A stretch of DNA of 64,000 bases from a virus, in IMG/VR virus record IMGVR_UViG_3300042907_001596, positions 86,441-150,440 of that record; one strand, 5' to 3'. Position 1 is the stretch's first letter, and every line of letters begins with the position of its first letter. The translations under genes and the position numbers were made by a program. A model generated the notes under the pieces. It was given only the letters and a program-made list of their open reading frames with translations, made no database searches and was not told the origin of the DNA. This document shows positions 11,621-57,759 of the stretch, one piece after another.

Positions 11621-13270
11621 GTGGCGAGACGGATCCAGCGGCAAGCTGAAGTGTATTCCTGGCGTACCGCCGACCCGGTGTGGCGTCGGGTCGCACGCTT
11701 CCCCGTCCCGGCGGAGTGGGCCAGCGACCCCGAGATGCAAGGTACCCTCGCCGCCCCTCGCGGGCACAGCGGCAGGCGCTGGGACGAACACATCCAGAAC
11801 CTCGACACCCTCCTCAACGAGTACCACGACAACAAGATCGACAGCCGGTCGATGTTCGGCCAGCACGACCCGATCACCAAAACCACCCGGTGGAACGCCG
11901 ACCGGGTGAAGATGCACCAAGACATCGTCAACGAACTCGTCGCGCAGATGGCGAACATCCCCCGGCAGAAACGGGCCATCCTGATGGCCGGACTGGGCGG
12001 GGCGGGCAAAACCTGGGTGCAAAACCAGCCCTTCTTCGGGGTGGATGCGAAGCAGTTCTTCGTCCTCAGCGCCGACAACATCAAAGAGATGATGGCCGCA
12101 CGCGGCATGATGCCCACCGCGAAGCACGACCCGCGCTTTGCCGGACACTCCCCGATGGAATTGAGTTCCCTCATCCACCTGGAGTCCGACGAGATCGCCA
12201 AGCGGGTCGCGGAGATCGCCACTGAGCAGGGCACCAACGTCATCTGGGACTACCGGATGGCCAACCTGCCTTCGGCACTAGAGCGCATCGGCCGGTTGCG
12301 CAGCAACGGCTACAAAGACATCGGGGCGTTCCTGGTCAACGTCGACCCGCAACGGGCACTGAAGTCCGCGATCAGCCGACACAAAGACGGCCAACAGGCG
12401 TGGCTGGACTCCGGCGGGTCGGATCCGGCGAAGCAGGGTGGCCGTTGGCTACCCAGTTTTGCCCACCATGAAGGCAGCCCCACCCCCGGCTCCGGCATGA
12501 TGAGCAGCAGCCAGGAAGCGTTCAACCAACTCATCACTCAGCACGCCGACCTGCTGCCGATGGGGTACGGCTCCATCGACAACCGGGTGCGCGGCAAGCC
12601 GGTGTTCCAAGGCGGCAGCGGACAGTGGGCTAACCTCAACATTCCGCAGGGCCACCCCGACACCCTGGCCCCGACACCACCGACGCCGACGCTGGTCAGC
12701 GCGAGGAGATGGTTCATGGCCGACGAGCACAACCTCTACGAAACTGACCCATACAGCGTGCGCGGAATCCTCAACGCCTACAGGGCCGAGCAGATCGACT
12801 ACCCCACGTTGGTGTCGGAAATCGTCAACCGATTCATGGCGATCACCCCGATTGCCGACGACCCGGCCCGCGCCGGATGGTCGCAGTACATGCACAGCGA
12901 AATGATGCCGGGGGACGACGACGGCTTCTGGTTGTCGTGTGCTGTCAGCTTGGGCGTTCTGACTCCCGAGCAGCTAGATGAAATCCTCGACGCCATCCAC
13001 CAGTCCGTCCACAACGAGCCGCCGCCGGTGCGTCAAGCCAACTCCGTCACTGTCAACTATCCGGCCGAGTCGGTGGTGTATCACAGCAACTACATCAAAG
13101 CCGTCGGGGATCAACTGGTGGAGTGGTTCGATTCGCGCCGCCAGCCGGGGGAGACGATCGACCACTTTATGAAGCAGTACGCCTCCAACCCTGACGAGGT
13201 GGCTGTCGCCAAGCCGTATGTAGAGCGTTTTTTGGGGCGCACTGACATCTATCCCCAATCCGGCGTGTAG
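11621..13270 (+). CDS. zeta-toxin-like P-loop kinase fused to a C-terminal domain, 549 aa
   Basis: A P-loop GLGGAGKT lies near residues 124-131 inside RAILMAGLGGAGKTWVQNQ. It is followed by an LSADNIKEMMAARG stretch and GTNVIWDYRMANLPSALERI, the layout of zeta-toxin/PezT kinases. Known members phosphorylate UDP-N-acetylglucosamine and block cell-wall synthesis; whether this one does is inference. After an SARRWFMADE junction, the C-terminal ~180 residues form an unrecognised helical domain. Preferred start is GTG 11621, six bases after AGGAGG (ATG at 11606 and 11615 lie on or before the ribosome site). No epsilon-like antitoxin is visible next door. It sits between fibre genes and the endolysin. 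Confidence 0.65.
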   Translation: MARRIQRQAEVYSWRTADPVWRRVARFPVPAEWASDPEMQGTLAAPRGHSGRRWDEHIQNLDTLLNEYHDNKIDSRSMFGQHDPITKTTRWNADRVKMHQDIVNELVAQMANIPRQKRAILMAGLGGAGKTWVQNQPFFGVDAKQFFVLSADNIKEMMAARGMMPTAKHDPRFAGHSPMELSSLIHLESDEIAKRVAEIATEQGTNVIWDYRMANLPSALERIGRLRSNGYKDIGAFLVNVDPQRALKSAISRHKDGQQAWLDSGGSDPAKQGGRWLPSFAHHEGSPTPGSGMMSSSQEAFNQLITQHADLLPMGYGSIDNRVRGKPVFQGGSGQWANLNIPQGHPDTLAPTPPTPTLVSARRWFMADEHNLYETDPYSVRGILNAYRAEQIDYPTLVSEIVNRFMAITPIADDPARAGWSQYMHSEMMPGDDDGFWLSCAVSLGVLTPEQLDEILDAIHQSVHNEPPPVRQANSVTVNYPAESVVYHSNYIKAVGDQLVEWFDSRRQPGETIDHFMKQYASNPDEVAVAKPYVERFLGRTDIYPQSGV

Positions 13271-13306
13271 CTGTATCCCCCCTCCGCCCGCCCCTAAAAG
13301 GATGAG
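13270..13306 (+). promoter_or_regulatory. class II late promoter-like site before endolysin
   Basis: GCTGTA (13270-13275) begins at the last base of the upstream stop codon. After 21 bp it is followed by AAAGGATGAGG at 13297. The endolysin start is 46 bp from the first box. Confidence 0.55.
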
Positions 13307-13315
13307 GAGGGTGTG

Positions 13316-14995
13316 ATGAGCTTTCGCGTGGTGTACGGCCAATCCCGCAGCGAGAATGGCTGGCGGATGTGCAACGCCGACGAAACCGATTCGTTGCCTA
13401 TCCCCGGCAGTAGCGTGCGGATCCCGCTGCGCTCCGGCGTCCCCAGCACCATCCTGCGAGCGTTCGCGTCCCGATTCAACCAGTTGATCGAACCGCTGGA
13501 TCAGACCCAGTGCGGCGGCTGGACGCCGACGAACTCCGTCGCTACGTCGAACCACCTCGCCGGTTCCGCCGTCGATCTGAACTGGAGGCTGCACCCCTTC
13601 AGGGTCAAAGGAACCTTCGGGGACAAGCTGCCGGTGCTGCGCAACATCCTCCGCGAGTTTGAGGGCACCGTCTTTTACGGCGGCGACTGGGCGAACCCGA
13701 TAGATGAGATGCACTTCCAGATGAACTACGACTGCTTTGAGGGGTCGAAGAAAGCAGAAGACTTTGCTCAGCGCCTCCTCAACGGACATCTGGGAATCTA
13801 TGCCTCCGCTAACCCGAACGATTTCCCGCTGCCGCTGGGGTACTACTACGGCCCGCTCAGCGGCCCGAACGAGTCGGTATCCGGCGAGTGGGCGGGGGAG
13901 CGGCCGGAGTGGAGGGCGGGCCTGAAGCGGTGGCAGAAAGCGTTGGGTCTGAAGCAGACCGGCAAGTGGAATGACGGCGTCACCGCGAAGGCCGCGACGA
14001 CACTCCAGCTAGCTAAGCGGTGGCCTCCGCACCCTGACTTCGGCTACGGCGGGGTGTACCTGGGTGAGTGGGATGCCGTCATCAAGAACGGTTGGCGTCT
14101 GCCGGACGGCTGGAAGCCCGACGCGGTGCCCGCGACCCGCGTCAAGTGGGCGGATGTCAGCCAGTACCAAACTGCCACCCTCGACGCCACCTACCCCTAC
14201 CCGGTGGTGGCGTTCCGTGCGTCCGTCGCTGACCGGCGCGACACAAAGTTCCTCGCCAACATGACCGCCGCCCGCAAGCTGGTGGCTGCCGGGAAGCTCC
14301 AGAAAGTCATCGCCTACCACTTTTGGGTTCCCGGCTACGACAACGTCGGCACCTTCATGTCGGCGCTGGAGAGCAGCGGCGGGATATTCCCCGAACTGGC
14401 TTTTATGATCGACGTAGAAGACGGCGGCACGAAGTGGAATATCACCGGTGACCAGTCCGACGGCGTCAACGACTTCATCGACCGCGTGTCGGAGCGCTTC
14501 GGCAACCCGGCGGCGGCGGTCGGCTATCTCAACTTCCGCTCCAACCAAGACTTGTGGAAGACCATCCCGCACGGACTGAAGCTCATCGTCCCGGCGTACA
14601 GCGGGCCGGAAAGCAAGCCGTGGGTGCCGGAAGGCTACACGGCGTTCGGGCATCAGTATGCCGACAACGAAGACACCCCGCCGTTCGGGCCGTGCGACAT
14701 CAACCAGGCGCACATGACGCTGGCCGACTTCATCTCCGCGTTCGGCGTACAAGCTGTACCAGATCTTGTACCAGATTCTGGTACCACTCCGGTACCTCCC
14801 CCGACCGGCGCGGGGAGCCTTACCCTCACCGGCCGACCGCTAGACCCCCGCATCCCCGACGACCTGGCAGGTCACGTCTTGTCGATGCGGATGGAAGGAC
14901 TGCGCACCCAAGCCTTGGTTGCTGCGCTGTGCGAAGCCAACAACATCGACGTGAGCGACGTGTTTAACAAGGTAAAGGATGCCGTGACGCCATGA
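13316..14995 (+). CDS. lysA: endolysin: M15-type peptidase, peptidoglycan-binding segment and GH25 muramidase, 559 aa
   Basis: Residues ~66-138 carry an M15/VanY-like metallopeptidase signature: SNHLAGSAVDLNW (His and Asp ligands) and DEMHFQMN (second His). Residues ~190-255 look like a peptidoglycan-binding helical repeat (GLKRWQKALGLKQTGKWNDGVTA). Residues ~275-475 are a GH25 lysozyme with VKWADVSQYQ and the acidic FMIDVEDGG centre. A short helical tail follows. The enzyme should cut both stem peptides and glycan strands of the host wall during lysis. ATG 13316 is preferred over GTG 13313 because GAGGAGG lies 5 bp upstream. It overlaps the holin-like gene by 4 bp. Confidence 0.9.
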   Translation: MSFRVVYGQSRSENGWRMCNADETDSLPIPGSSVRIPLRSGVPSTILRAFASRFNQLIEPLDQTQCGGWTPTNSVATSNHLAGSAVDLNWRLHPFRVKGTFGDKLPVLRNILREFEGTVFYGGDWANPIDEMHFQMNYDCFEGSKKAEDFAQRLLNGHLGIYASANPNDFPLPLGYYYGPLSGPNESVSGEWAGERPEWRAGLKRWQKALGLKQTGKWNDGVTAKAATTLQLAKRWPPHPDFGYGGVYLGEWDAVIKNGWRLPDGWKPDAVPATRVKWADVSQYQTATLDATYPYPVVAFRASVADRRDTKFLANMTAARKLVAAGKLQKVIAYHFWVPGYDNVGTFMSALESSGGIFPELAFMIDVEDGGTKWNITGDQSDGVNDFIDRVSERFGNPAAAVGYLNFRSNQDLWKTIPHGLKLIVPAYSGPESKPWVPEGYTAFGHQYADNEDTPPFGPCDINQAHMTLADFISAFGVQAVPDLVPDSGTTPVPPPTGAGSLTLTGRPLDPRIPDDLAGHVLSMRMEGLRTQALVAALCEANNIDVSDVFNKVKDAVTP

Positions 14996-45840: not shown

Positions 45841-46092
45841 ATGTCGTTAGCCGAAGAACTGGACAAAGAGCGGCAGGATCAGCGGGGCCGCAAGTGCGCG
45901 GTCTGCGACTGGCTGGCCCGCCAAAGCCAGGATGACCGGGACTCTTTCGATGAATGGGTTGATCAAGAGGGCAACTTCTCCAAGCTCTGGCGGGCGTGCC
46001 GCCGCCGCCCCGACCCCCTGCCCTGTCAGTACGCCCACTTGACCCGGCACATTCGCGGGGGATGCGGACGGCTAGACGATGTCTCTTCGTGA
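45841..46092 (+). CDS. small zinc-finger-like protein, 83 aa
   Basis: Cysteines in KCAVCDWLARQ, RACRRR, PLPCQYAHLTRHIRGGCG, together with two histidines, suggest one zinc site in a small helical protein. It resembles short actinophage proteins with a CxxCxWL start followed by an FDEWVD motif that I know only as conserved hypotheticals. AAGGGGA ribosome site. It overlaps the metallophosphoesterase gene by 14 bp, so it may assist that enzyme; inference. Confidence 0.65.
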   Translation: MSLAEELDKERQDQRGRKCAVCDWLARQSQDDRDSFDEWVDQEGNFSKLWRACRRRPDPLPCQYAHLTRHIRGGCGRLDDVSS

Positions 46093-47230
46093 CGAACTGA
46101 ACGCCTACCCGGCCGCAGAAGAACCGCAGTACAGCCCGCACTTTGAGTTCGACGGCAACGGCGGCGTCGTGCAGACCGGGCCGATGCCGATCACCGACGG
46201 CTTCGACTTTGAGGACACCCTGCGCCGGTTTGGCAAGGATCCCGAACACTACGAGGTGGCAGGGGAGCCGCAGGAGTCCATCTGGGAGCAGCGTTCCCGC
46301 AACCGGGAAACCAACGAGTTTGAGACGACGCTGCTGCACGCCTGGAAGGCCCGCTTCCGGCGCAAAGCGTCGCACACCGCCGCCGACCTGGAGTCGCTGA
46401 TCGCCAAAGTCCGCAAGACTCCGCCGGAACCCGTCAAGGACGGGCACTGGTTCGTCTTCCAGGCGGGGGATCAGCAGCTAGGCAAGCGCAGCCAGGGCGG
46501 CGCGACGGAAGAGATCATCGAACGCTACCTCCAGTCCGTGGAGGCTGCGGTGGTGGAGTTCAAAAACCTGAAGCGGCACGGCATCGCCGGGATCCAACTC
46601 TCCTTCCCCGGCGACTGCCTGGAGGGGAATCAGAGCCAGGCGGGGCGCAACCTGTGGCTGACCGATACGACCATCACCGAAGGTGTCCGCATCTTCCGGC
46701 GGCTGCTGTACCAAACCATCGAACGGCTCTCCCCGCTGGCCAGCCAGTGCCTGGTGACCGTCGTTAACGGCAACCACGACGAATCACAGCGCAGCCAGAA
46801 CACCTGGCCGGGAGACGGCTGGGCGACGGAGTGCGCCATCGCGGTGTCCGACCAGATCAAAATGAACGACGCCGCCTTCGGGCATGTGGACATCTTGGTG
46901 CCGGACAAATGGCGAGCCGCCATGACCGTGCCGGTCGGGGACACGATCGTCACCGTCGTCCACGGCAACCAGTGGCAGAAAGGCAAGGCTTTCGATTGGT
47001 GGGCGGCGCAGAGCGTCAACAACCACTCCCCCGGCGCGGCCCAAGTCCTCCAACACGGCCACTGGCACCAGTGGGCGATCGGCTCCAACGCGAAGCGCAC
47101 CGTCGTGTCCAGCCCTACCTTTGAGGTGGGCAGTGACTACCTCATCAACGCCAAAGGATCCACCGCCAAGCGTGGGGCGCTGGTGTACCTGATGAAGTCC
47201 GGCGAAGTCAGTCGAATGAGCGTGGTGTGA
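46079..47230 (+). CDS. metallophosphoesterase (calcineurin-like), 383 aa
   Basis: The five metal motifs of the calcineurin-like family are visible in order: AGDQQLGK, FPGDCLEGN, VNGNHDESQ, TVVHGNQWQKG and LQHGHWHQW. The N-terminal ~90 residues are acidic and unassigned. Known relatives include Mre11/SbcD nucleases and other phosphodiesterases; the lack of an SbcC-like partner in the window leaves the substrate open. It is in a late transcription unit among virion genes, unusual for a replication nuclease. ATG 46079 overlaps the previous gene. Confidence 0.8.
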   Translation: MSLRDELNAYPAAEEPQYSPHFEFDGNGGVVQTGPMPITDGFDFEDTLRRFGKDPEHYEVAGEPQESIWEQRSRNRETNEFETTLLHAWKARFRRKASHTAADLESLIAKVRKTPPEPVKDGHWFVFQAGDQQLGKRSQGGATEEIIERYLQSVEAAVVEFKNLKRHGIAGIQLSFPGDCLEGNQSQAGRNLWLTDTTITEGVRIFRRLLYQTIERLSPLASQCLVTVVNGNHDESQRSQNTWPGDGWATECAIAVSDQIKMNDAAFGHVDILVPDKWRAAMTVPVGDTIVTVVHGNQWQKGKAFDWWAAQSVNNHSPGAAQVLQHGHWHQWAIGSNAKRTVVSSPTFEVGSDYLINAKGSTAKRGALVYLMKSGEVSRMSVV

Positions 47231-47233
47231 ACC

Positions 47234-47437
47234 ATGATATTTCGGCTCACCATCTTGGGCCACGAGGTGTGGTGCTTAGAGCTTGCCTTCGCCTCCGTCG
47301 AAGAAGTTGAGGCCGAAGACTCTCGCCGCATCGGCGGCGGGGAAACCCACAATTTTGAGCGAGACGCTTCCCCGCTGAACCCCGCCGACCACTACGGGGA
47401 GTGGGAAGATCGTCACCGTCCGTTTGGTTTTCGGTGA
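47234..47437 (+). CDS. conserved small actinophage protein, 67 aa
   Basis: It begins MIFRLTILGHEVWCLEL, a beta-strand start followed by an acidic helix and a disordered polar tail. I recognise the RLTILG-x-E-V-x-x-LEL opening from many tiny conserved genes of mycobacteriophages, all of unknown function. ATG 47234 lies 3 bp after the previous stop and has no clear ribosome site, suggesting translational coupling. Confidence 0.6.
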   Translation: MIFRLTILGHEVWCLELAFASVEEVEAEDSRRIGGGETHNFERDASPLNPADHYGEWEDRHRPFGFR

Positions 47438-47476
47438 CCTGTATTCGGGCCGGAGTGGGCAGAGAAAGGATGGAGG
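47438..47476 (+). promoter_or_regulatory. class II late promoter-like site
   Basis: CCTGTA (47438-47443) begins at the first base after the stop; AAAGGATGGAGG starts at 47465 after 21 bp. Gene start 46 bp from the first box. Confidence 0.6.
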
Positions 47477-47483
47477 AGGGGAC

Positions 47484-48065
47484 ATGAACTGGCAGGTAGC
47501 TACTGTGGTGTTAGCTTTCTTAGTGGCTCTTCTAGCCCTGCTGCTCGCTAGCTGGACGTACTGGTGGTCAGACGACATCAGTCACGCCCTCTTAGCTCCC
47601 TTCCAAGAAACCGACCGCAAGATCCTCTCCCGAATTGGAGTCCTCATGTCCCTCGCTTCCCAGATCGAAAACGCCGTCGCCAAGCTCAACCTGGCGGTGA
47701 CCGAGAACAACATCAACGTCGGCGCACTCAAGGACAGCCTCGCGTCCTTGACCGCTCAGGTCACCGACCTGAAGACTCAGGTCGACACGCTGACCGCCGC
47801 CGGTACCGACACCGACCCGGCCCTGGTCGCTGCCGTCGATGACCTGTCCGTTGCCGCCGACGCGGTGCTGGCCCAGGCCGACGCCGTCAACCCGCTCGAC
47901 ACGCTGGTCGTTCCGGCCGTCGTGGTTGAGTCCGACACCCCGGCTGCCATCGTGGCTGACGGCGGAGTCATCGACGCCACCATCACCCCGGTCGAGGATC
48001 CCGCCCCGGTCGAGGTCGAGGTTCCGGTCGAGGTCGAGGTTCCGGTCACCGACGACACCGTCTAA
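47484..48065 (+). CDS. membrane-anchored coiled-coil protein with repeat tail, 193 aa
   Basis: Residues 5-27 (VATVVLAFLVALLALLLASWTYW) form one membrane segment. A long coiled coil follows (LMSLASQIENAVAKLNLAVTENNINVGALKDSLASLTAQVTDLKTQVDTLTAAG), then an Ala/Val/Asp-rich stretch ending in tandem PVEVEV repeats. ATG 47484 is chosen for its GGAGGAGGG site. ATG 47646 (MSLASQ) has a weaker GGAG and would give a soluble form without the membrane segment; both may be used. Function unknown; it ends at a terminator. Confidence 0.6.
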   Translation: MNWQVATVVLAFLVALLALLLASWTYWWSDDISHALLAPFQETDRKILSRIGVLMSLASQIENAVAKLNLAVTENNINVGALKDSLASLTAQVTDLKTQVDTLTAAGTDTDPALVAAVDDLSVAADAVLAQADAVNPLDTLVVPAVVVESDTPAAIVADGGVIDATITPVEDPAPVEVEVPVEVEVPVTDDTV

Positions 48066-48942: not shown

Positions 48943-49326
48943 ATGACCGTAGGACTCTCCACGGTAAACCTGGCGAACGCCATGCTCAACGGGATCCGTG
49001 GCACTGCGTTCAACAACGCCGCCACCCACATCGCCCTGCACGTTGGCGACCCCGGTGCTGCTGGGACAACCAACCCGTCGGCCGTCACTGTCCGGCAGGC
49101 TGCGACCTTCGCGGCGGCAGCGACCGGCGCGATTGCGCTGTCGGCCTCTCCGACTGCGTGGAACATGACTGCGTCCGAGTCGATCACGCACATCAGTGTG
49201 TGGTCGGCTTCGACCGCCGGTTCCTTCCTCTGGTCGGCAGCACTGTCGGTGAGCAAGACGGTGGCCAACGGCGACACCCTCACCCTAAACACCTGCGGCT
49301 TGTCCCTCGCACCTTTGGCGGCGTAA
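48943..49326 (+). CDS. tail-associated structural protein, 127 aa
   Basis: The protein matches a common actinophage structural pattern: LANAMLNGIRGTAFNNAATHIALHVGDPGAAGTTNPSAVTVRQAATFAAAATG, then SITHISVWSASTAGSFLWSAALSVSKTVANGDTLTL. Such proteins are small beta-structured tail or fibre-associated components. ATG 48943 has AAAGG upstream. It precedes the giant fibre gene with only a UUCG-type hairpin between. Virion location inferred. Confidence 0.7.
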   Translation: MTVGLSTVNLANAMLNGIRGTAFNNAATHIALHVGDPGAAGTTNPSAVTVRQAATFAAAATGAIALSASPTAWNMTASESITHISVWSASTAGSFLWSAALSVSKTVANGDTLTLNTCGLSLAPLAA

Positions 49327-49382: not shown

Positions 49383-52300
49383 ATGGCAGTCGCTTTCGTC
49401 TCCACCGGCCCTGGTGGAACCGGCACTGCGGCCAGTTTGTCGTGGACGCACTCGCTCGCTTCGGTGAGCAACGGTTACGTCATCGTCTACGCCATGGCAG
49501 GGGGGTCGACCCCGACCTCGACGGCGACAGTCGGCGGCGTCAGCATGACAAGGCTGTGCGACTACGTCACATGGTCTGACGGTGGCATCTACGCCCTGAC
49601 GGCGTTCGGTTTGGCGACCAGCCTGACGGGCAATCAAACGGTTGTGGTCACCTATTCTTCATCGACCGAAGCCAGCGCGTCGTCTGTCTTTTACTCCGGC
49701 GTCAACTCCGCACAGCTTCCGCCAACCATCGCAACGGGCACTACCGTTTCAACGCTGTTCTCCAACAGCAGCACGGCCTGGTCTAGCGCAGTCACCCGGC
49801 CTGCTGGCGGATATGTTTCGCACTCCTTCGGCTCGCGTGTCGCGGCGGTCAGTCTCACCGGCGGAACACTGCGGTGGCAGCGATCAACAACCGGTGTGGC
49901 CGACACGGTGACCAGCAGAAACTTCCTATACGTCCAAGACGCGGCGGCGACAACAACATTCTCAGGATCCGCTACCGGGCGCGGCTGGGGAGCCGTCCGT
50001 ATCCAGTTAAATCCCGCCCCCGTCACCGCCAACGCTTCGCTGGCAGTCACTGCAACGCCGACAGCGGGCGTCATAAAAAATCCTGCCACAGTTAAGGGCA
50101 CTGCGGAATCAGCGTTAGCGTCGAGTGTTGCGATCCCCGCGCATGCCGTGGGTGATGTAATTGTCATCTTTGGGTATCTGAATGGCCTCGCCACCCCACC
50201 CACGGCACCAACCGCTTCAGGCACCGTTCCGGCGTGGGTTCCGATTCAAAGCGGCGGCGGTAACTCTAATGGCGGCGGCGCATGGTATTTCGTCGCCACC
50301 AGCAACAATCATACGTCGGGGACGTGGGGTAGCTGCTCCGGCCTTACTGCGGTAGTGATTCAAGGCGCAAAAACCACGTCGTCACCCATAGGTGGTTTTG
50401 CACTATCGAACGCTAACGTAGTCAACTCTGTTACCGCGCCTGCAATTACACAACGTGTGACCGACGGCTCTAGCTGCCTGCTGTATTTCCACGGCCACCG
50501 GAACTGTACGGCCTGGGGATCTGCGCCTACCGGATTTACTAGGCGCACCGCCGTGGCAGGCACGTCAGGCTTATGCCTCAACACCAAAGATGATCCAAAG
50601 TCTGACGGTGCCGCGACGCAAACAAATACCGGCAACGGCGGCGCTTTGGGTCAGACAATCGAAATTATGGCGGCTTCGGCCCCAACCTTAGTTGACGCCT
50701 CTGTGCCGGTCACGGCAACGCGGACGGCAGCCGCAAGCAATGCTGCTCGCGCCAACGCTACCCCAGCCGTCACCGCTACCCTGACGGCGGGCGTTGTAAA
50801 AAGTGGCGTCGACTTCAACAGTCAAACAAGTACTCTCACCGGAACATCCGGTGCTGCTTCTGCCTCAATTCCTTTCACCGCCTTATTGGGTGCAGATGTT
50901 TTTGTAGCTATCTCAACCGCAACGGCTGTGCAGCGAACAATCACGTCGTGCAGCTATGGCGGCGTGGCAATGACGCTTATCGCCAACATAGGCCATGGCA
51001 GCGACACAAGTACGCTCTATGGCACTACGGCCCTGTACCGTTTGGCCGGATCGGGTTCGGGCGCGTCAAAAACAGCCGCATTTACGTTCAATGCGAACAC
51101 GGCTCATTCCGCAACTGTTTTTTCTTACAGTGGAGTCGGAAGTGTAGGCACTGCAACAACTTCATTCGGCAGTGCTTCGCCGTCAATCGGCCCGATTGCG
51201 TGCGCCAGCGGGGATGTGATTGTTGGTGTTATCGGAACCGGCGTAAGCAACCTTGGTTCTGCTATCACGGCGACTAGCGGCGGCACTAACCGTGCCATTA
51301 CAAACAGCGTCGCCAACTATGCCGGGTTAGCAGTTTCTGATTCAGCCGCGACAGGCACCACGTTTAGCGCTACGCAATCATCCGCTTTGGGCTGGTCTGG
51401 TATCGCACTCGTCCTTAGTACCGGGACGGTTACCGCCGCCGCCGCCGATGCCACCCTGGCCGTTACTGCTAATCGCACCGCGAACGCTGTTGTCGTTACC
51501 CAAGTAAGCTCCACTACTCTGGCAGGAACCGCCACTCGTACAGCAACAGCGACCCGCAATCACGCCGCCGACGCTTCGCTCCCGGTCACCGCCACCCTCA
51601 ACGGGGTGTTCCCCTACATCTTCCCGTTTGCCCTCGACGGCAGTCCGTCGGTGGCCCGCAACGCCGTCGTCAACGCCCCCCTGGCCGTCACCGCCACGCC
51701 GACCGCAACGGCCAGCATCCAGGCTCGCGCCAACGTCAGCCTGCCTGTCACGGCCAGTCGGCCATCTGCTGCTACCCGCAATCAGTTCGCCACCACTACC
51801 ACGCTGGCGGCGACGGGAACCTTAACGGGATCGGCCGGACTCCAATTCGTCGCCAACGCCAGCCTCCCGGTCACCGCCACCGTTACTGCTGCCGCTTCCC
51901 TCGCCGCCGCCGGAGCAGCCACCAGGGCTGTCACCGCCACCTTTACGGCAACAGCAACCCGCAACGCCGTCGTCAACGCTAATGCCCCCTTTACCGCTAC
52001 CTTTAATGCCACCGCCAGAAGCCAGACCGCAGCCAACTCCAGCTTGGCTCTGACGGCAGCGTTCACCGCCACCAGTACCCGCAACCACGTCGCCAATGCG
52101 TCCTTCGCAGCAACGACGAATCGGGCCGGAGCCGCCAGCGCCCAAGCCTCCGCCAGCACCGCCGTAGCGGTCACCGCCGCACCTTCTGCCACCGCCGCCG
52201 TCGCCGGAATAGCCGCTGCACTTCTGACTCTCGTTGACACCCCGACCTCCGCCGCTATTCGCAACCAGTTCGTCAACTCGACCACGCTGGCCCTCACTGC

Positions 52301-55277
52301 CGTCCTTGCCGGGGCTGCTAACGCTCAGGCCGTCGCCAACACCAGCTTGCCGGTCAGCATCGCACCGACCTCCGCCGCAACCCGCAACCAGTTCGTCACC
52401 TCCACCACCCTGGCCGCTACCGCTACCCGCACGGCTGCGGTCAGCAATCAAGCCGTCGCGGCTGCTGCGCTGCCGGTCACCGCCACCCTGACCGCAGCGG
52501 CATCTACCGCCAGAATCGCAGCCGGTTCACTTGCCACTACTGCGACCCTGACTTCAACAGCGACCCGTAACGCCATCGTCAACGCCGCACTCCCGTTCAC
52601 CGCCACCCCGACGGGGGCTATCAGCAACCAGGCCGTTGCTAACTCCAGCCTGCCAGTTACGGCGTCAACCCCCGCGACCTCGACACGCAACCATTTCGCC
52701 AACGCCGCCTTGGCCGTCACCGCCACTCGCACCGGGGTGATCTCGCAGAACTACGTCACCTCAACATTTCTGTCGGTCACTGCAAATCTCACCGCCACCA
52801 GTACCCGCAACCACGTCGCCAATACGTCATTAGCCGCCACCGCCGTTCTCAACGGGGTGTTCCCCTACATCTTCCCGTTTGCCTTGGATGGCAGCCCGTC
52901 GGTCATCCGCACTATGAACATGCTGGCGGCACAGGCTGTCACCGCCACGCGGGAAGCGGCAACCACCGTCCAGGCTGTCGCCAACGCCACTACCTTGTCG
53001 GTGACGGCGGGCATCACTTCCGCCGCAGCCCGCAACCATTTCACCGCCGCTTCGCTGCCGGTAACAGCCACGCTGTCGGGGGCGGCACGCAACCAAGCCG
53101 CCGCCAACGCCAACCTCCCGGTCACCGCTACACGGACTGCTGCTAGCACCCGCAGCCAGTTCGCCAGCGCCGCCCTGCCGGTCACCCTCAACGGTGTCTT
53201 CCCGTACATCTTCCCGTTCTTGCTGGATGGCACATCAGCGATCCGCAACGCCAACGCACTGTCAGCACTGGCGGTCACGGCGACTCCGACGGCTGCGGCG
53301 ACGATTACTACCTCCGCTGCGTCCGCAATCACGATCACCGCAACACCGTCAGCCCAGCCCAAACTCCAGGCGGTGGTCAACGCCAGCCTGCCGGTGGGCG
53401 TCACCTTCACCGCCTCTACTACCCGAAGTCAGTTCGCGAACTCCTCCTTGGCGCTGACGAGCACCACCATCAATGCCGGAAACTTCTCCCCGGCGGCGGG
53501 GAACACCCCGATGGTGATCACCGCGACTTTGACGGGAAGCGGAACCCGCAACGCCGTCGTCAACGCAGCGCTGGCCCTCACCTCCACCCCCACCGGCCTG
53601 CTCAACCAGGGCCAGCCCTTCAGTGCCTCCCTGGCGGTGACCTCCACGCTGGTCGGGGTGGCCAGTCGCGGACAAAGAATAGATGCGTCCCTAGCGGTGA
53701 CCGCTGCCCGTCCGGCTACCGGGATCCGCAACGCCGTCGTTAATGCGGCTTTGGCTGTCGCCGCGACGACGACCTCCGCCCTCGCCGTGGCGGCACAGAT
53801 AGCGGCTGATGTTGCCAGCACCGCGACCCTGACCTCGACGGCGACCCGCACCGCCGTAGGAAATGCTCTGCTGGGCGTCACCGCTTCCCGTACTGCCGCC
53901 GCCCGACAGAACTATGCGACCTCCGCCAACCTTGTGGTCACAGCCAGCATGATTGCTGTGGAGCAGGCGTCCGTCGTCGCCAACCAGAACTTGACGGCGA
54001 CCTCGACGGCGACGGCGACGGCCACCCGCAACCGATTTGTCGCGTCAACATTGGTGATCACCGGAACCCCGGCCGCAGCGGTATCGCAGCGGTACGCGGC
54101 TAATGCCGACCTCGACCTGGCGGCGACGGCCGACGGATCGGGCACCCGCAACCAGTTCGCCGCCGCCGCTTTGGCGGTGACCGCGACACCGTCATCAACC
54201 GCAGGCCGGGGCCAGCCCATCCTGGCGGCATTGGCGGTGACGGCGTCCCCAACTGCTTCCGCCGTCCGCAGCGCCATCGCCACTACGGCTTTGTCGGTTA
54301 TCGCCACCCCGATCGCGGCGGTGTCACAGAACTATGCGACCAACACGTCACTAGCCGTCACGGCGATTCTGACGGCGACCGATACCCGCAACCAGTTCGC
54401 TAACGCCTCCCTAGCGGTCACCTCAACGACGACGAACACCGTCGCGATGTCGGCCCGCATTGACGCCCCGCTGGTCATCACCGTCACCCGCAGCGGAACC
54501 GTGACCCGCAACCAGTTCTCCGCCGCCAGTTTGGCTGTCACCGCCAGCCCGACGGCCACCATCTTCTGGGGCTTCGGGGCGCAAGCCTATCTCGTCGTTA
54601 CCGCCACCACGGCCGGATCCTGCACGAGGAATCACTTCACCGGGGCGTTCACCATCCCGATCACCGCCACGACTTCGGCAGCCGGAATCGGCAGCGGTCA
54701 ACTTTCCACCTTCACCACCGGCACCGCGTCCCTCACCGCCGATGTCGGGAGGGGGCAGCCCTTCGCTGCCGCTTTGACGGCGACCGCTACCCCCACGGCT
54801 ACCCCGTCGAAAGGGCAGTCGCTCGCGGCAAGCCTCCCGGTCACCGCCGCCGTGTCGTCGTCCGGTACCCGCAACCAGTTCATCAACGCCAGCCTGGCAG
54901 TAACGGCAACCCCTGCGGCGCTAGCCAACACCAGCACGTCCTTCAGCGCGACCCTGCCGGTCACAGCCAGCCGGACGGCTGCGCTGACCCGAGGACAGGC
55001 CCTCAATGCCGCCCTGGTCGTGACCAGCAGCCGCCCCACTTCTGTGGGTGTGGCCTACGCAGTCAGCGCCAACACGCTGGCGGTGACCGGCACTTTCTTG
55101 TGCGGAGTGACTTTATCGCGGATCATCAATGCCAATCAGAGCATCAACTGCTCCGTGCCGGAAATGAGGTTGAAGCTCGACGCCAGTGTCATCGCCGTCT
55201 TGGTCGTCACCGAAACGTCCGACCCCACCAACATTACCGAACTACGACCGGGCAACTTCTTTGCCTACTATCTCTGA
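49383..55277 (+). CDS. giant repeat fibre/adhesin, 1964 aa
   Basis: Residues 1-~680 consist of three beta-sandwich domains of the same kind as the genes at 9092 and 56707 (first MAVAFVSTGPGG...RGWGAVRIQLN, last SSALGWSGIALVLSTG). From ~680 to ~1900 the protein is a tandem array of ~20-residue units of the form L-x-V-T-A-T-x-T-A-x-x-T-R-N-Q-x-x-N-A-S. A cassette NGVFPYIFPFALDG is inserted three times. The last ~60 residues form a non-repetitive cap (ADPTNITELRPGNFFAYYL-like end). It is probably a long flexible virion fibre for cell-surface contact. GGCGGAGGTGAG ribosome site. Confidence 0.7.
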   Translation: MAVAFVSTGPGGTGTAASLSWTHSLASVSNGYVIVYAMAGGSTPTSTATVGGVSMTRLCDYVTWSDGGIYALTAFGLATSLTGNQTVVVTYSSSTEASASSVFYSGVNSAQLPPTIATGTTVSTLFSNSSTAWSSAVTRPAGGYVSHSFGSRVAAVSLTGGTLRWQRSTTGVADTVTSRNFLYVQDAAATTTFSGSATGRGWGAVRIQLNPAPVTANASLAVTATPTAGVIKNPATVKGTAESALASSVAIPAHAVGDVIVIFGYLNGLATPPTAPTASGTVPAWVPIQSGGGNSNGGGAWYFVATSNNHTSGTWGSCSGLTAVVIQGAKTTSSPIGGFALSNANVVNSVTAPAITQRVTDGSSCLLYFHGHRNCTAWGSAPTGFTRRTAVAGTSGLCLNTKDDPKSDGAATQTNTGNGGALGQTIEIMAASAPTLVDASVPVTATRTAAASNAARANATPAVTATLTAGVVKSGVDFNSQTSTLTGTSGAASASIPFTALLGADVFVAISTATAVQRTITSCSYGGVAMTLIANIGHGSDTSTLYGTTALYRLAGSGSGASKTAAFTFNANTAHSATVFSYSGVGSVGTATTSFGSASPSIGPIACASGDVIVGVIGTGVSNLGSAITATSGGTNRAITNSVANYAGLAVSDSAATGTTFSATQSSALGWSGIALVLSTGTVTAAAADATLAVTANRTANAVVVTQVSSTTLAGTATRTATATRNHAADASLPVTATLNGVFPYIFPFALDGSPSVARNAVVNAPLAVTATPTATASIQARANVSLPVTASRPSAATRNQFATTTTLAATGTLTGSAGLQFVANASLPVTATVTAAASLAAAGAATRAVTATFTATATRNAVVNANAPFTATFNATARSQTAANSSLALTAAFTATSTRNHVANASFAATTNRAGAASAQASASTAVAVTAAPSATAAVAGIAAALLTLVDTPTSAAIRNQFVNSTTLALTAVLAGAANAQAVANTSLPVSIAPTSAATRNQFVTSTTLAATATRTAAVSNQAVAAAALPVTATLTAAASTARIAAGSLATTATLTSTATRNAIVNAALPFTATPTGAISNQAVANSSLPVTASTPATSTRNHFANAALAVTATRTGVISQNYVTSTFLSVTANLTATSTRNHVANTSLAATAVLNGVFPYIFPFALDGSPSVIRTMNMLAAQAVTATREAATTVQAVANATTLSVTAGITSAAARNHFTAASLPVTATLSGAARNQAAANANLPVTATRTAASTRSQFASAALPVTLNGVFPYIFPFLLDGTSAIRNANALSALAVTATPTAAATITTSAASAITITATPSAQPKLQAVVNASLPVGVTFTASTTRSQFANSSLALTSTTINAGNFSPAAGNTPMVITATLTGSGTRNAVVNAALALTSTPTGLLNQGQPFSASLAVTSTLVGVASRGQRIDASLAVTAARPATGIRNAVVNAALAVAATTTSALAVAAQIAADVASTATLTSTATRTAVGNALLGVTASRTAAARQNYATSANLVVTASMIAVEQASVVANQNLTATSTATATATRNRFVASTLVITGTPAAAVSQRYAANADLDLAATADGSGTRNQFAAAALAVTATPSSTAGRGQPILAALAVTASPTASAVRSAIATTALSVIATPIAAVSQNYATNTSLAVTAILTATDTRNQFANASLAVTSTTTNTVAMSARIDAPLVITVTRSGTVTRNQFSAASLAVTASPTATIFWGFGAQAYLVVTATTAGSCTRNHFTGAFTIPITATTSAAGIGSGQLSTFTTGTASLTADVGRGQPFAAALTATATPTATPSKGQSLAASLPVTAAVSSSGTRNQFINASLAVTATPAALANTSTSFSATLPVTASRTAALTRGQALNAALVVTSSRPTSVGVAYAVSANTLAVTGTFLCGVTLSRIINANQSINCSVPEMRLKLDASVIAVLVVTETSDPTNITELRPGNFFAYYL
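51430..55100 (+). repeat. coding tandem array of ~60-bp units
   Basis: About 3.6 kb within the fibre gene encodes degenerate ~20-residue units; by length there is room for some 50-60 units. Near-identical DNA is visible in places, e.g. the cassette coding for NGVFPYIFPFALDG near 51598 and 52850 (identical over more than 30 bp), with a diverged third copy near 53188. The array could expand and contract by recombination. Confidence 0.75.
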
Positions 55278-55286
55278 AAGGAAATC

Positions 55287-56705
55287 ATGGTACTCAAGTC
55301 CACCTGGGCCTCCGGCGAAGTGCTGACCGCCGCCAACTTCAACGAGGTGGCCACCGACATCAACACGTTGTCCAACGCCGTCCAGTTCGCCACCAACGTC
55401 ACGGCTAACGGAACCACCACCCTGACCGTCGCCAGCGCGGGTGTTCAGGAGTTCACCGGCACCGCCAACCAGACCGTGGTGCTGCCGACTACGTCGGTGC
55501 TTGCTGGTGAACGCCACCGCATCATCAACAACTCGACCGGCGCGGTGACGGTACAGTCCTCCAACCTGACGACCGTCACTGTCTTGGCGACGAACACCAG
55601 CGGCTTATTCATCGCACTGGTTGCCACGCCGACGGCTCCGACCCACTGGGATGCCCAGTACTTCGCGGGCAAGTATGCGGCTGGCAAGGCGGTGACCTTC
55701 AACAACTCGCTGACGCTGGCCGGTACTGACGCGACCACGATGACGTTCCCCGGCGCGTCCGACACCGTGGTAACGCTGGCTGCGGCCCAGGCACTTACCA
55801 GCAAGACCCTGACCACCCCGACCCTGACGACCCCGGTGATTACCGGAACGGTGACCGGCACCTACACCCTTGGTGGCACCCCCACCTTCCCCACTCTGAA
55901 CCAGAACACCACCGGCACCGCAGCGAACGTCACCGGCACCGTCGCGGTGGCCAACGGCGGCACCGGCTCCACCTCCTTGGTCACTGCCGCTACCGCTTCC
56001 AGTGTGGCTGCGCGAGATGCCAACGCCAACCTTTTCGCTGACAACTTCATCAGCGTGGTGGAGTCCACCGCGACGGCGGCAGGCACGACGACCCTCACCA
56101 TCGCCAGCGGTGGTGTTCAGGTGTTCACCGGCTCTCTAATACAGACGGTGGTTTTGCCCAGCACCTCAGTCACCGCAGGCATGTCATGGACGGTCATCAA
56201 CCAGTCCACCAATTACATCCAGGTGGCTTCCTCCTTGGGCAACTCCATCTCGACGCCGTGGCCTAACGGCCGCATCAACCCTTCCGTAGCGATGATGTTC
56301 ACCGCGACGGCGGCGACCCCCACGACGGCAGCACACTGGAGGGCGACCTCCTTGTCCGACGCGGATCGCCGGACGATTCCGCGTATAGGCACTGTCGCCT
56401 CTGCTGCCGCCCCGGCCATCAACACCGACCTCTTCGATCAGTTCAACATCACCGCGCTGGCGACGGCGATCACGTCAATGTCAACCAACCTGTCGGGTCA
56501 GCCCGCTGACGGTCAAAAGTTGACGATCCGCATCACCGGGGATGCGACTCCGCGTGCGATCACCTGGGGTTCCGGCTTCATCAATTCCGGTGTAGCGACC
56601 CTGCCGACCACGACTGTAGCCTCTAAAACCCATCTGGTCGGTCTGATATACGACGAGTCAAAAACCAAGTGGGTTTGTGCCGCCTCCGACGTGATCGGAT
56701 ACTGA
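55287..56705 (+). CDS. tail fibre protein, 472 aa
   Basis: It starts with the fibre opening STWASGEVLTAANFNEVATDINTLSN. Two related beta blocks follow (TLTVASAGVQEFTGTANQTVVLP and TLTIASGGVQVFTGSLIQTVVLP, an internal duplication) separated by a shaft segment with TLTTPTLTTPVITG and the phage-fibre motif VAVANGGTGSTSL. The C-terminal ~120 residues form a distinct head (FDQFNITALATAITSMSTNLSGQPADGQKLTIRITGD). Typical of adhesins displaying a head on a trimeric shaft. GAAAGGA precedes the ATG. Receptor unknown. Confidence 0.8.
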   Translation: MVLKSTWASGEVLTAANFNEVATDINTLSNAVQFATNVTANGTTTLTVASAGVQEFTGTANQTVVLPTTSVLAGERHRIINNSTGAVTVQSSNLTTVTVLATNTSGLFIALVATPTAPTHWDAQYFAGKYAAGKAVTFNNSLTLAGTDATTMTFPGASDTVVTLAAAQALTSKTLTTPTLTTPVITGTVTGTYTLGGTPTFPTLNQNTTGTAANVTGTVAVANGGTGSTSLVTAATASSVAARDANANLFADNFISVVESTATAAGTTTLTIASGGVQVFTGSLIQTVVLPSTSVTAGMSWTVINQSTNYIQVASSLGNSISTPWPNGRINPSVAMMFTATAATPTTAAHWRATSLSDADRRTIPRIGTVASAAAPAINTDLFDQFNITALATAITSMSTNLSGQPADGQKLTIRITGDATPRAITWGSGFINSGVATLPTTTVASKTHLVGLIYDESKTKWVCAASDVIGY

Positions 56706-56706
56706 T

Positions 56707-57375
56707 ATGGCCGTCACGTTTGATGCGAGTGCGTCTGATAACGGCAGCAAAGGACTCTTTGACGGCAGTACGTTAAGCACGCAGTTCACGCACGTCAGTG
56801 GTGCTGGCACTGACCGCATGGCAATCGTCCTGGGCAAATACCACGATTCAAGTTCGACCGCATCCGGCAGCATCACCATCGGTGCGTCGTTTGGTGTACA
56901 GCCCATGACCGCGCTGGGGTCGGTGATGTTCAACAACGGCACAGGCGACAAGGCCACCCTGTTCTACCTGGCCAACCCGCCCACCGGAAACCAGACGGTG
57001 CTTGTGACGGCCACCGCGCCCCAGGTCAATCGCGGGATAATCGGGATTTCGATGACGTTCGCGGGAGTGAAAGGACTTGGCCCCCTGGCCAGCAGCGCCG
57101 GTACAGGGTCTGTTAATGCCACAATAACCTACGGCGGGTTTGCCAACGGACTCGTGGTAACCGCAATGGGCTGGGCCTCCCCAGGCATGTTTTCCGGCCC
57201 CGGCAGTGTTGGCGTTGCCTACAAGGCGCAGGCAGAAGGCACCCGTGACAGTCATATGGTGGCGGATACAGCGAATGGCCCCTACACCCAAACCGGCACC
57301 GCGCAAGACGCAACTCCGTGGGGGATTCTTGGAGTTTCCCTGGTCGGGGATTCTCCGTTTTTTGCGATGATGTGA
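56707..57375 (+). CDS. beta-sandwich fibre-associated protein, 222 aa
   Basis: The whole protein is one copy of the domain that opens the fibres at 9092 and 49383: MAVTFDASASDNGSK, QFTHVSGAGTDRMAIVLG, NPPTGNQTVLVTATAP, ending WGILGVSLVGDSPFF. It starts 2 bp after the previous stop. It may be a stand-alone tip or a duplicated head domain. Its DNA is somewhat less GC-rich than its neighbours. Function inferred only from homology within the window. Confidence 0.65.
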   Translation: MAVTFDASASDNGSKGLFDGSTLSTQFTHVSGAGTDRMAIVLGKYHDSSSTASGSITIGASFGVQPMTALGSVMFNNGTGDKATLFYLANPPTGNQTVLVTATAPQVNRGIIGISMTFAGVKGLGPLASSAGTGSVNATITYGGFANGLVVTAMGWASPGMFSGPGSVGVAYKAQAEGTRDSHMVADTANGPYTQTGTAQDATPWGILGVSLVGDSPFFAMM

Positions 57376-57441: not shown

Positions 57442-57759
57442 ATGGCCAAGTTTGATGAGGTTTTTGCCGACCTCCAAGCCAAGATGAACGCCGCGATGGC
57501 CGTGATCGCCCAAGACCCGGTGATGGCTGCTCAGGTTCGGGAAGCCATCGACAACGCCCAGACCGCCGCCGAAATCGAAGAGGCGGCTGCCCAAGACGAC
57601 GCTCGCGCCAACGCTTTGAACGCGATGGTGGTCAACGTGCGCGGCATCCTGGCTGAGGCCGTAGGCGAGGAGCCTCCCGTCGAGGAGCCGGTGGAGGAGC
57701 CTCCCGTCGAGGAGCCGGTGGAGGAGCCTCCCGTCGAGGAGCCGCCCGTCGAGGAGTGA
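57442..57759 (+). CDS. helical protein with PPVEEPVEE repeat tail, 105 aa
   Basis: The N-terminal ~70 residues are helical (MAKFDEVFADLQAKMNAAMAVIAQDPVMAAQVREAIDNAQTAAEIEEAAAQDDARANALNAMVVNVRGILAEAVG). The C-terminal ~35 residues are tandem E-E-P-P-V/E-E-P-V units, encoded by near-perfect 15-30 bp DNA repeats (57661-57755). A similar charged-proline tail (PVEVEV) ends the protein at 47484. AAAGGAA ribosome site. Likely a virion spacer or assembly protein; unproven. Confidence 0.6.
   Translation: MAKFDEVFADLQAKMNAAMAVIAQDPVMAAQVREAIDNAQTAAEIEEAAAQDDARANALNAMVVNVRGILAEAVGEEPPVEEPVEEPPVEEPVEEPPVEEPPVEE

What the first reader, a model, noticed from the sequence alone, without database searches (positions are those of the whole stretch)
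49383..55277. A 1964-residue fibre built from ~20-residue repeats: candidate hypervariable adhesin
About 1200 residues follow one ~20-residue pattern (LxVTATxTA..TRNQ..NAS). Such long, homogeneous coding repeats invite unequal recombination and could let the phage tune fibre length or binding. Three multi-domain heads sit at the N-terminal end, where other fibres have them at the C-terminus.
Basis: partly seen in the sequence, partly recalled or inferred. Interest (0 to 1): 0.7.

Follow-up and report, generated by a model that had tools for sequence, protein, structure and literature searches.

The report
Giant repeat-shafted accessory phage fibre
A mycobacteriophage-like contractile-tailed virus carries a 1964-residue virion fibre with three surface-binding-type domains at one end and a shaft of about 58 diverged 20-residue repeats, an unusually long version of a known kind of minor tail protein rather than a fast-changing adhesin.

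Summary
ORF 49383-55277 (1964 aa) has three β-rich domains (D1-D3), three 20-residue units in the joints between them, then 58 units over aa 689-1915. The repeats are not homogeneous: units average 33% protein and 47% DNA identity, and Tandem Repeats Finder sees no array. Block duplications now only 64-72% identical show that the shaft grew by recombination, long ago. In cultured phages with a shorter cousin (Faithunavirus 'minor tail protein'), five homologues at 84.5-100% DNA identity keep the same ungapped 12-unit shaft. Distant syntenic relatives differ greatly: 0 units (L065), about 34 (L080), 61 here. N-terminal heads are normal for the family; in L080 heads and shaft segments alternate. 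The gene sits beside a GP4-fibre-like small gene, between major capsid and sheath genes, in a variable slot where relatives carry collagen-like shafts, other head-bearing proteins, or none of these heads or repeats. Best reading: an accessory virion fibre assembled by shuffling heads and shaft units. Capsid or tail attachment and ligand are unknown. The repeat has no Pfam or PDB match; AlphaFold gives one strand per unit at low confidence. New variant of a known kind.

The parts
49383..55277 (+). 1964-aa repeat-shafted fibre gene (P0001)
   Evidence: Open frame with RBS; PHROG minor tail protein hits 13352, 553, 2106, 9784
49383..50024 (+). Head D1 (aa 1-214), beta-sandwich-type domain of mycobacteriophage minor tail proteins
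   Evidence: Homologous to L080 N-terminal head; AF2 model pTM 0.70, BFVD hits to minor tail proteins E 6e-9
50031..50090 (+). Single repeat unit at the D1/D2 joint; absent from the syntenic repeat-less relative L065
50100..50693 (+). Head D2 (aa 240-437), phrog_13352 domain
   Evidence: phrog_13352 E 3.7e-40; 66% identical to L065 D2
50694..50813 (+). Two repeat units between D2 and D3
50814..51446 (+). Head D3 (aa 478-688), same family as D1
   Evidence: phrog_553/2106; 41% identical to Minerva gp41 C-terminal domain
51447..55127 (+). Shaft: 58 units of 20 residues (aa 689-1915)
   Evidence: AF2 of 10 units: one ~15-residue strand per unit, low confidence
51597..51653 (+). FP-rich hydrophobic insert copy 1 (LNGVFPYIFPFALDGSPSV)
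52848..52904 (+). FP-rich insert copy 2, 36-bp exact match to copy 1, 1251 bp apart (in frame)
53187..53243 (+). FP-rich insert copy 3
55128..55277 (+). C-terminal tail (aa 1916-1964 and stop), not repeat
48943..49326 (+). Gp80/phrog_240-like small virion protein, upstream partner candidate
   Evidence: Pfam Gp80 E 4e-23; PDB 8jou chain a E 1.2e-9; same gene precedes the repeat protein in L080 and Gardann
55287..56705 (+). 472-aa fibre-like protein with the C-terminal domain shared by other fibre genes of this group
56707..57375 (+). 222-aa stand-alone D1-type head
   Evidence: phrog_9784 positions 1-193; aligns with the heads

Best explanation
The gene encodes an accessory structural fibre of a circularly permuted, roughly 150-kb contractile-tailed phage related to Mycobacterium cluster C (Bixzunavirus) and Phrappuccino. 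Three beta-sandwich-type heads at the N-terminal end carry, by inference, the surface-binding function. The 58-unit segment is an elongated beta-rich shaft (one strand per 20 residues, predicted at low confidence) that holds the heads away from the particle. The small GP4-fibre-like protein next door is the likely adaptor. The gene lies in a module between the capsid and sheath genes whose content is swapped among relatives. Its length evolves by occasional duplication or loss of multi-unit blocks and by head shuffling, not by rapid slippage. Shown: sequence architecture, homology, synteny, divergence of units, block duplications, conservation in Faithunavirus. Inferred: presence in the virion, shaft role, binding role, attachment point.
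For: Heads match minor tail protein PHROGs and predicted folds of mycobacteriophage minor tail proteins (E down to 6e-9). A cultured-phage family annotated as minor tail protein (phrog_9784: Gardann, Faith1, Tourach) has head + Gly-rich domain + 12 units of the same register, preceded by the same Gp80-like gene. L080 has the orthologous slot gene, flanked by homologues of window ORFs 48114, 48439, 48943 upstream and 57838, 58899, 59254, 59979 downstream, with three heads alternating with ~34 units. L065 has D1-D2 joined without a unit. Collagen-like shafts fill the slot in L051 and L057. Sheath gene split across the record ends shows that the record is circularly permuted. Block duplication at 606 nt lag, 454 nt, 64% identity; best segment 74.5 against at most 54 in unit-shuffled controls.
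Against: No proteomics or structure for this virion. The repeat model is low confidence (pLDDT 50, pTM 0.40) and matches no solved fold. The slot is not among the tail-tip genes, which lie at record 3-26 kb and include another fibre candidate, so a tail role is not certain. Head resemblance to solved folds is weak (best Z 7.4 over about 100 residues).
Confidence: 0.7

Rival explanations
1. Capsid (head) fibre: the protein hangs from the head and makes reversible first contact with the cell, like the long capsid fibres of phage 7-7-1. (A finer version of the best explanation.)
For: Gene lies between major capsid and sheath, outside the tail-tip block; the slot in Bxz1-like phages holds genes annotated head fiber and head decoration; 7-7-1, also contractile, has 88-114 nm flexible capsid fibres of unidentified protein (PMC12796354).
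Against: PHROG 'head' labels are unreliable here: phrog_5711 'head fiber protein' also hits a tail-module protein, and Gp80-like genes sit in the minor tail block of siphophages. The heads are minor tail protein domains.
Confidence: 0.4
2. Tail or baseplate-attached side fibre encoded away from the baseplate genes. (The other finer version.)
For: The annotated relatives of the heads and repeats are mostly called minor tail proteins and lie at the tail tip; the C-terminal domain of the neighbouring ORF 55287 lies in a Phrappuccino minor tail protein next to a baseplate gene.
Against: Position between capsid and sheath genes; a separate tail-fibre candidate is present by the baseplate genes.
Confidence: 0.45
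3. Hypervariable adhesin whose repeat number changes quickly by unequal recombination.
For: Repeat number differs among distant relatives (0, 12, ~34, 61); old block duplications exist; two FP inserts share 36 exact bp, 1251 bp apart and in frame.
Against: Units only 47% DNA-identical, neighbours least alike; no TRF array; constant 12-unit shaft in the Faithunavirus homologues inspected.
Confidence: 0.1

Closest known systems
phrog_9784, e.g. Mycobacterium phage Gardann gp24 (YP_009292538.1) and Tourach gp24, 'minor tail protein'
   Same: D1-type N-terminal head; C-terminal 20-residue LxV repeats in register; Gp80-like gene immediately upstream
   Different: About 762 aa, 12 units, a Gly_rich_2 domain and a distinct C-terminal region; lies in a siphophage tail-tip block
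L080: IMG/VR 3300036831_000067 slot gene (1450 aa)
   Same: Same slot, same flanking genes, heads plus the same repeat
   Different: Heads interspersed, about 34 units, no FP insert found
L065: IMG/VR 3300032279_000443 slot gene (416 aa)
   Same: D1-D2 order, D2 66% identical, downstream of a capsid gene 83% identical
   Different: No repeat unit at all; its D3-like head is in the next gene
Phage GP4 fibre I protein gp80 (PF23140; PDB 8jou chain a)
   Same: Homologue of the small neighbouring ORF 48943-49326
   Different: Not the repeat protein; GP4 is a podophage
Tweety gp54-type repeat proteins
   Same: Mycobacteriophage gene with coding repeats (PMC2884959)
   Different: Tetrapeptide repeats in a high-GC core, described there as resembling unstructured proteins, not a beta shaft

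Membership tests
phrog_9784 minor tail protein | N-terminal D1/56707-type head | tested here: met
   Head HMM built on D1 and relatives finds Gardann gp24, E 2.6e-25; the direct phrog_9784 head hit in the window is in the separate gene 56707
phrog_9784 minor tail protein | 20-residue LxV repeat shaft | tested here: met
   P0001 vs phrog_9784 positions 419-678, E 6e-9 to 3e-4
phrog_9784 minor tail protein | Gly_rich_2 domain between head and shaft | tested here: not met
   No Pfam hit in P0001; present in Gardann gp24, E 5.5e-23
phrog_9784 minor tail protein | Located in the tail-tip gene block | tested here: not met
   Lies between major capsid and sheath genes
Recently homogenised, copy-number-variable repeat adhesin | Near-identical tandem DNA repeats | tested here: not met
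   Mean unit DNA identity 47%, max 78%; no TRF array
Recently homogenised, copy-number-variable repeat adhesin | Repeat number varies among close relatives | tested here: inconclusive
   Constant in Faithunavirus cousins; no close relative of this phage found
Capsid (head) fibre | Attached to the capsid | not testable with these tools
   Needs cryo-EM or labelling
Trimeric beta-shaft fibre (triple beta-spiral type) | Trimer with shaft repeats of known fold | tested here: inconclusive
   Monomer AF2 only, pLDDT 50; no fold match

The most novel reading that the evidence does not exclude
The 20-residue unit is an undescribed beta-shaft fold (possibly with a two-unit, 40-residue structural repeat, as the alternation suggests) used as an interchangeable spacer in a swap slot where related phages put collagen-like shafts, so that one lineage exchanges whole shaft types and heads on a capsid or tail fibre.
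Probability: 0.35. Interest if true: 0.55.

Novelty: new variant of a known kind. Interest (0 to 1): 0.37.

Why it matters
It shows how a mycobacteriophage-type fibre can be lengthened and re-headed by modules (0 to 61 shaft units, different head sets, collagen-like alternatives) in one genomic slot. It also gives a defined 20-residue repeat without a Pfam or solved-structure match that could be solved and used to ask what long accessory fibres do on mycobacterial surfaces.

Tried and rejected
Pfam gave no family for P0001; phmmer against PDB gave only a chance hit. tblastn of the repeat tract in phages found nothing, possibly because of the low-complexity filter and strong divergence. The search for related loci with P0001, D2 or L080 found no closer relative. 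A repeat-motif DNA scan of viral and genome collections gave 7 and 115 stretches; the loci it stored held no other repeat array. The alignment A1 was too diverged to seed a collection scan. Foldseek with the repeat model gave no credible match (probability at most 0.08); suggestions of solenoids or ice-binding proteins there were discarded because the model is poor. C1q/TNF, CBM36 and baseplate matches of the head (Z 6-7.4) were taken only as 'common beta-sandwich arrangement'. No paper on repeat-number change in phage fibres was found.

Full report
OBSERVATION. The ORF at 49383-55277 is real, 1964 codons, in a dense + strand gene block. A 20-residue period is unmistakable: identity at lags 20, 40 and 60 is about twice the compositional expectation. 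A profile refined on the protein itself recovers 58 units in aa 689-1915, and single or paired units in the joints D1/D2 and D2/D3. The units are old: mean 33% protein and 47% DNA identity, adjacent units least alike. TRF finds no array in the gene. Units two apart are slightly more alike than neighbours (permutation p about 0.005 for the whole tract, but 0.14 in its longest gapless stretch), which hints at a 40-residue structural repeat. Three copies of LNGVFPYIFPF(A/L)LDG interrupt the tract; among all ORFs of the loci then in hand the same kind of FP-rich element appears only in the repeat-bearing protein of L006.

HOW THE SHAFT GREW. A self-comparison of the tract finds a 454-nt block copied 606 nt away at 64% identity and a 187-nt block copied 1251 nt away at 72%. 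Shuffling the order of units gives best scores of 37-54 against 74.5 observed. So the array grew in multi-unit blocks, but the copies have since diverged to a point where recombination between them should be rare (inference). The exception is the FP insert: copies 1 and 2 share 36 identical bases, and a deletion between them would be in frame.

SETTING. The window is the end of a 150,440-bp virus record. The tail sheath gene runs across the two record ends, so the record is circularly permuted. Major capsid protein is 80% identical to Bixzunavirus I3 and 76% to Phrappuccino. Tape measure, baseplate and a tail-fibre candidate lie at record 3-26 kb. P0001 lies between capsid and sheath genes. 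In relatives this interval differs in size and content: 3.1 kb from capsid gene to the 57838 homologue in L048, 4.4 kb in Phrappuccino, 6.5 kb in L043, 9.8 kb in L080, 13.2 kb here and 15.5 kb in L260 (my subtraction). Collagen-like proteins are found there in L051 and L057, and D1-type heads without repeats in L260 and L262.

RELATIVES. L080 has the orthologue in the same gene neighbourhood with three heads separated by shaft segments, about 34 units. L065 has D1-D2 without any unit; in P0001 a unit sits exactly at that joint. The cultured cousin is phrog_9784: Gardann gp24 and its homologues, head + Gly-rich domain + 12 units, right after a Gp80-like gene. In 39 records with 84.5-100% DNA identity the 3.2-kb region changes by no more than 15 bp, and in five inspected proteins, including isolates from the USA, Argentina and Madagascar, the shaft aligns without a gap; the gap in the part of the gene that carries the length difference is in the Gly-rich domain.

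STRUCTURE. The D1 head model (pLDDT 68, pTM 0.70, nine sequences) matches predicted mycobacteriophage minor tail proteins, E to 6e-9, and only generic beta-sandwiches among solved structures. The ten-unit shaft model gives one ~15-residue strand per unit but with pLDDT 50; it should be used only as a hint that the shaft is beta-structured.

FUNCTION. Best reading: accessory virion fibre with N-terminal binding heads and a beta shaft; Gp80-like protein as adaptor by analogy with GP4 fibre I. Whether it hangs on the capsid or the tail is open: gene position favours the capsid, homology favours the tail. Phage 7-7-1 shows that long capsid fibres used for first contact exist in contractile phages (PMC12796354). 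Binding, adaptor role and virion location are inferences, not shown.

VERDICT. Observation confirmed with two corrections; adhesin-type fibre supported; hypervariability not supported on the evidence available; N-terminal heads ordinary for the family. New variant of a known kind, moderate interest.

Noticed in passing
57667-57744 (in ORF 57442-57759): A truly homogeneous DNA array: 2.9 copies of a 27-bp unit at 100% match, coding EEPPVEEPVEEPP at the C-terminus of a 105-aa protein. This, not the fibre, is the slippage-prone coding repeat nearby.
   Followed up: no
48006-48047 (in ORF 47424-48065): 2.3 copies of an 18-bp unit at 100% match inside a spanin-like or coiled-coil ORF.
   Followed up: no
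51597, 52848, 53187: FP-rich hydrophobic insert LNGVFPYIFPF(A/L)LDG, three copies in the shaft; similar elements (FPIIIPYSFG, LPFVLPLTFGG) in the L006 repeat protein 12917-14740 and in no other ORF of the loci then in hand. Role unknown; could be an interaction or membrane-active patch.
   Followed up: partly
46079-47230: phrog_284 exonuclease / Mre11-like gene between the capsid gene and the fibre slot; a distant Mre11 homologue lies downstream of the lysis genes in L004.
   Followed up: no
L257 10783-12975: 731-aa protein next to baseplate genes with ten stretches matching phrog_5711 'head fiber protein'; likely a collagen-like or repeat tail fibre, showing that this PHROG label does not mark head location.
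   Followed up: no
record G000, ends: The tail sheath gene is split across the record ends although the record is classed linear: a circularly permuted, probably near-complete genome.
   Followed up: partly
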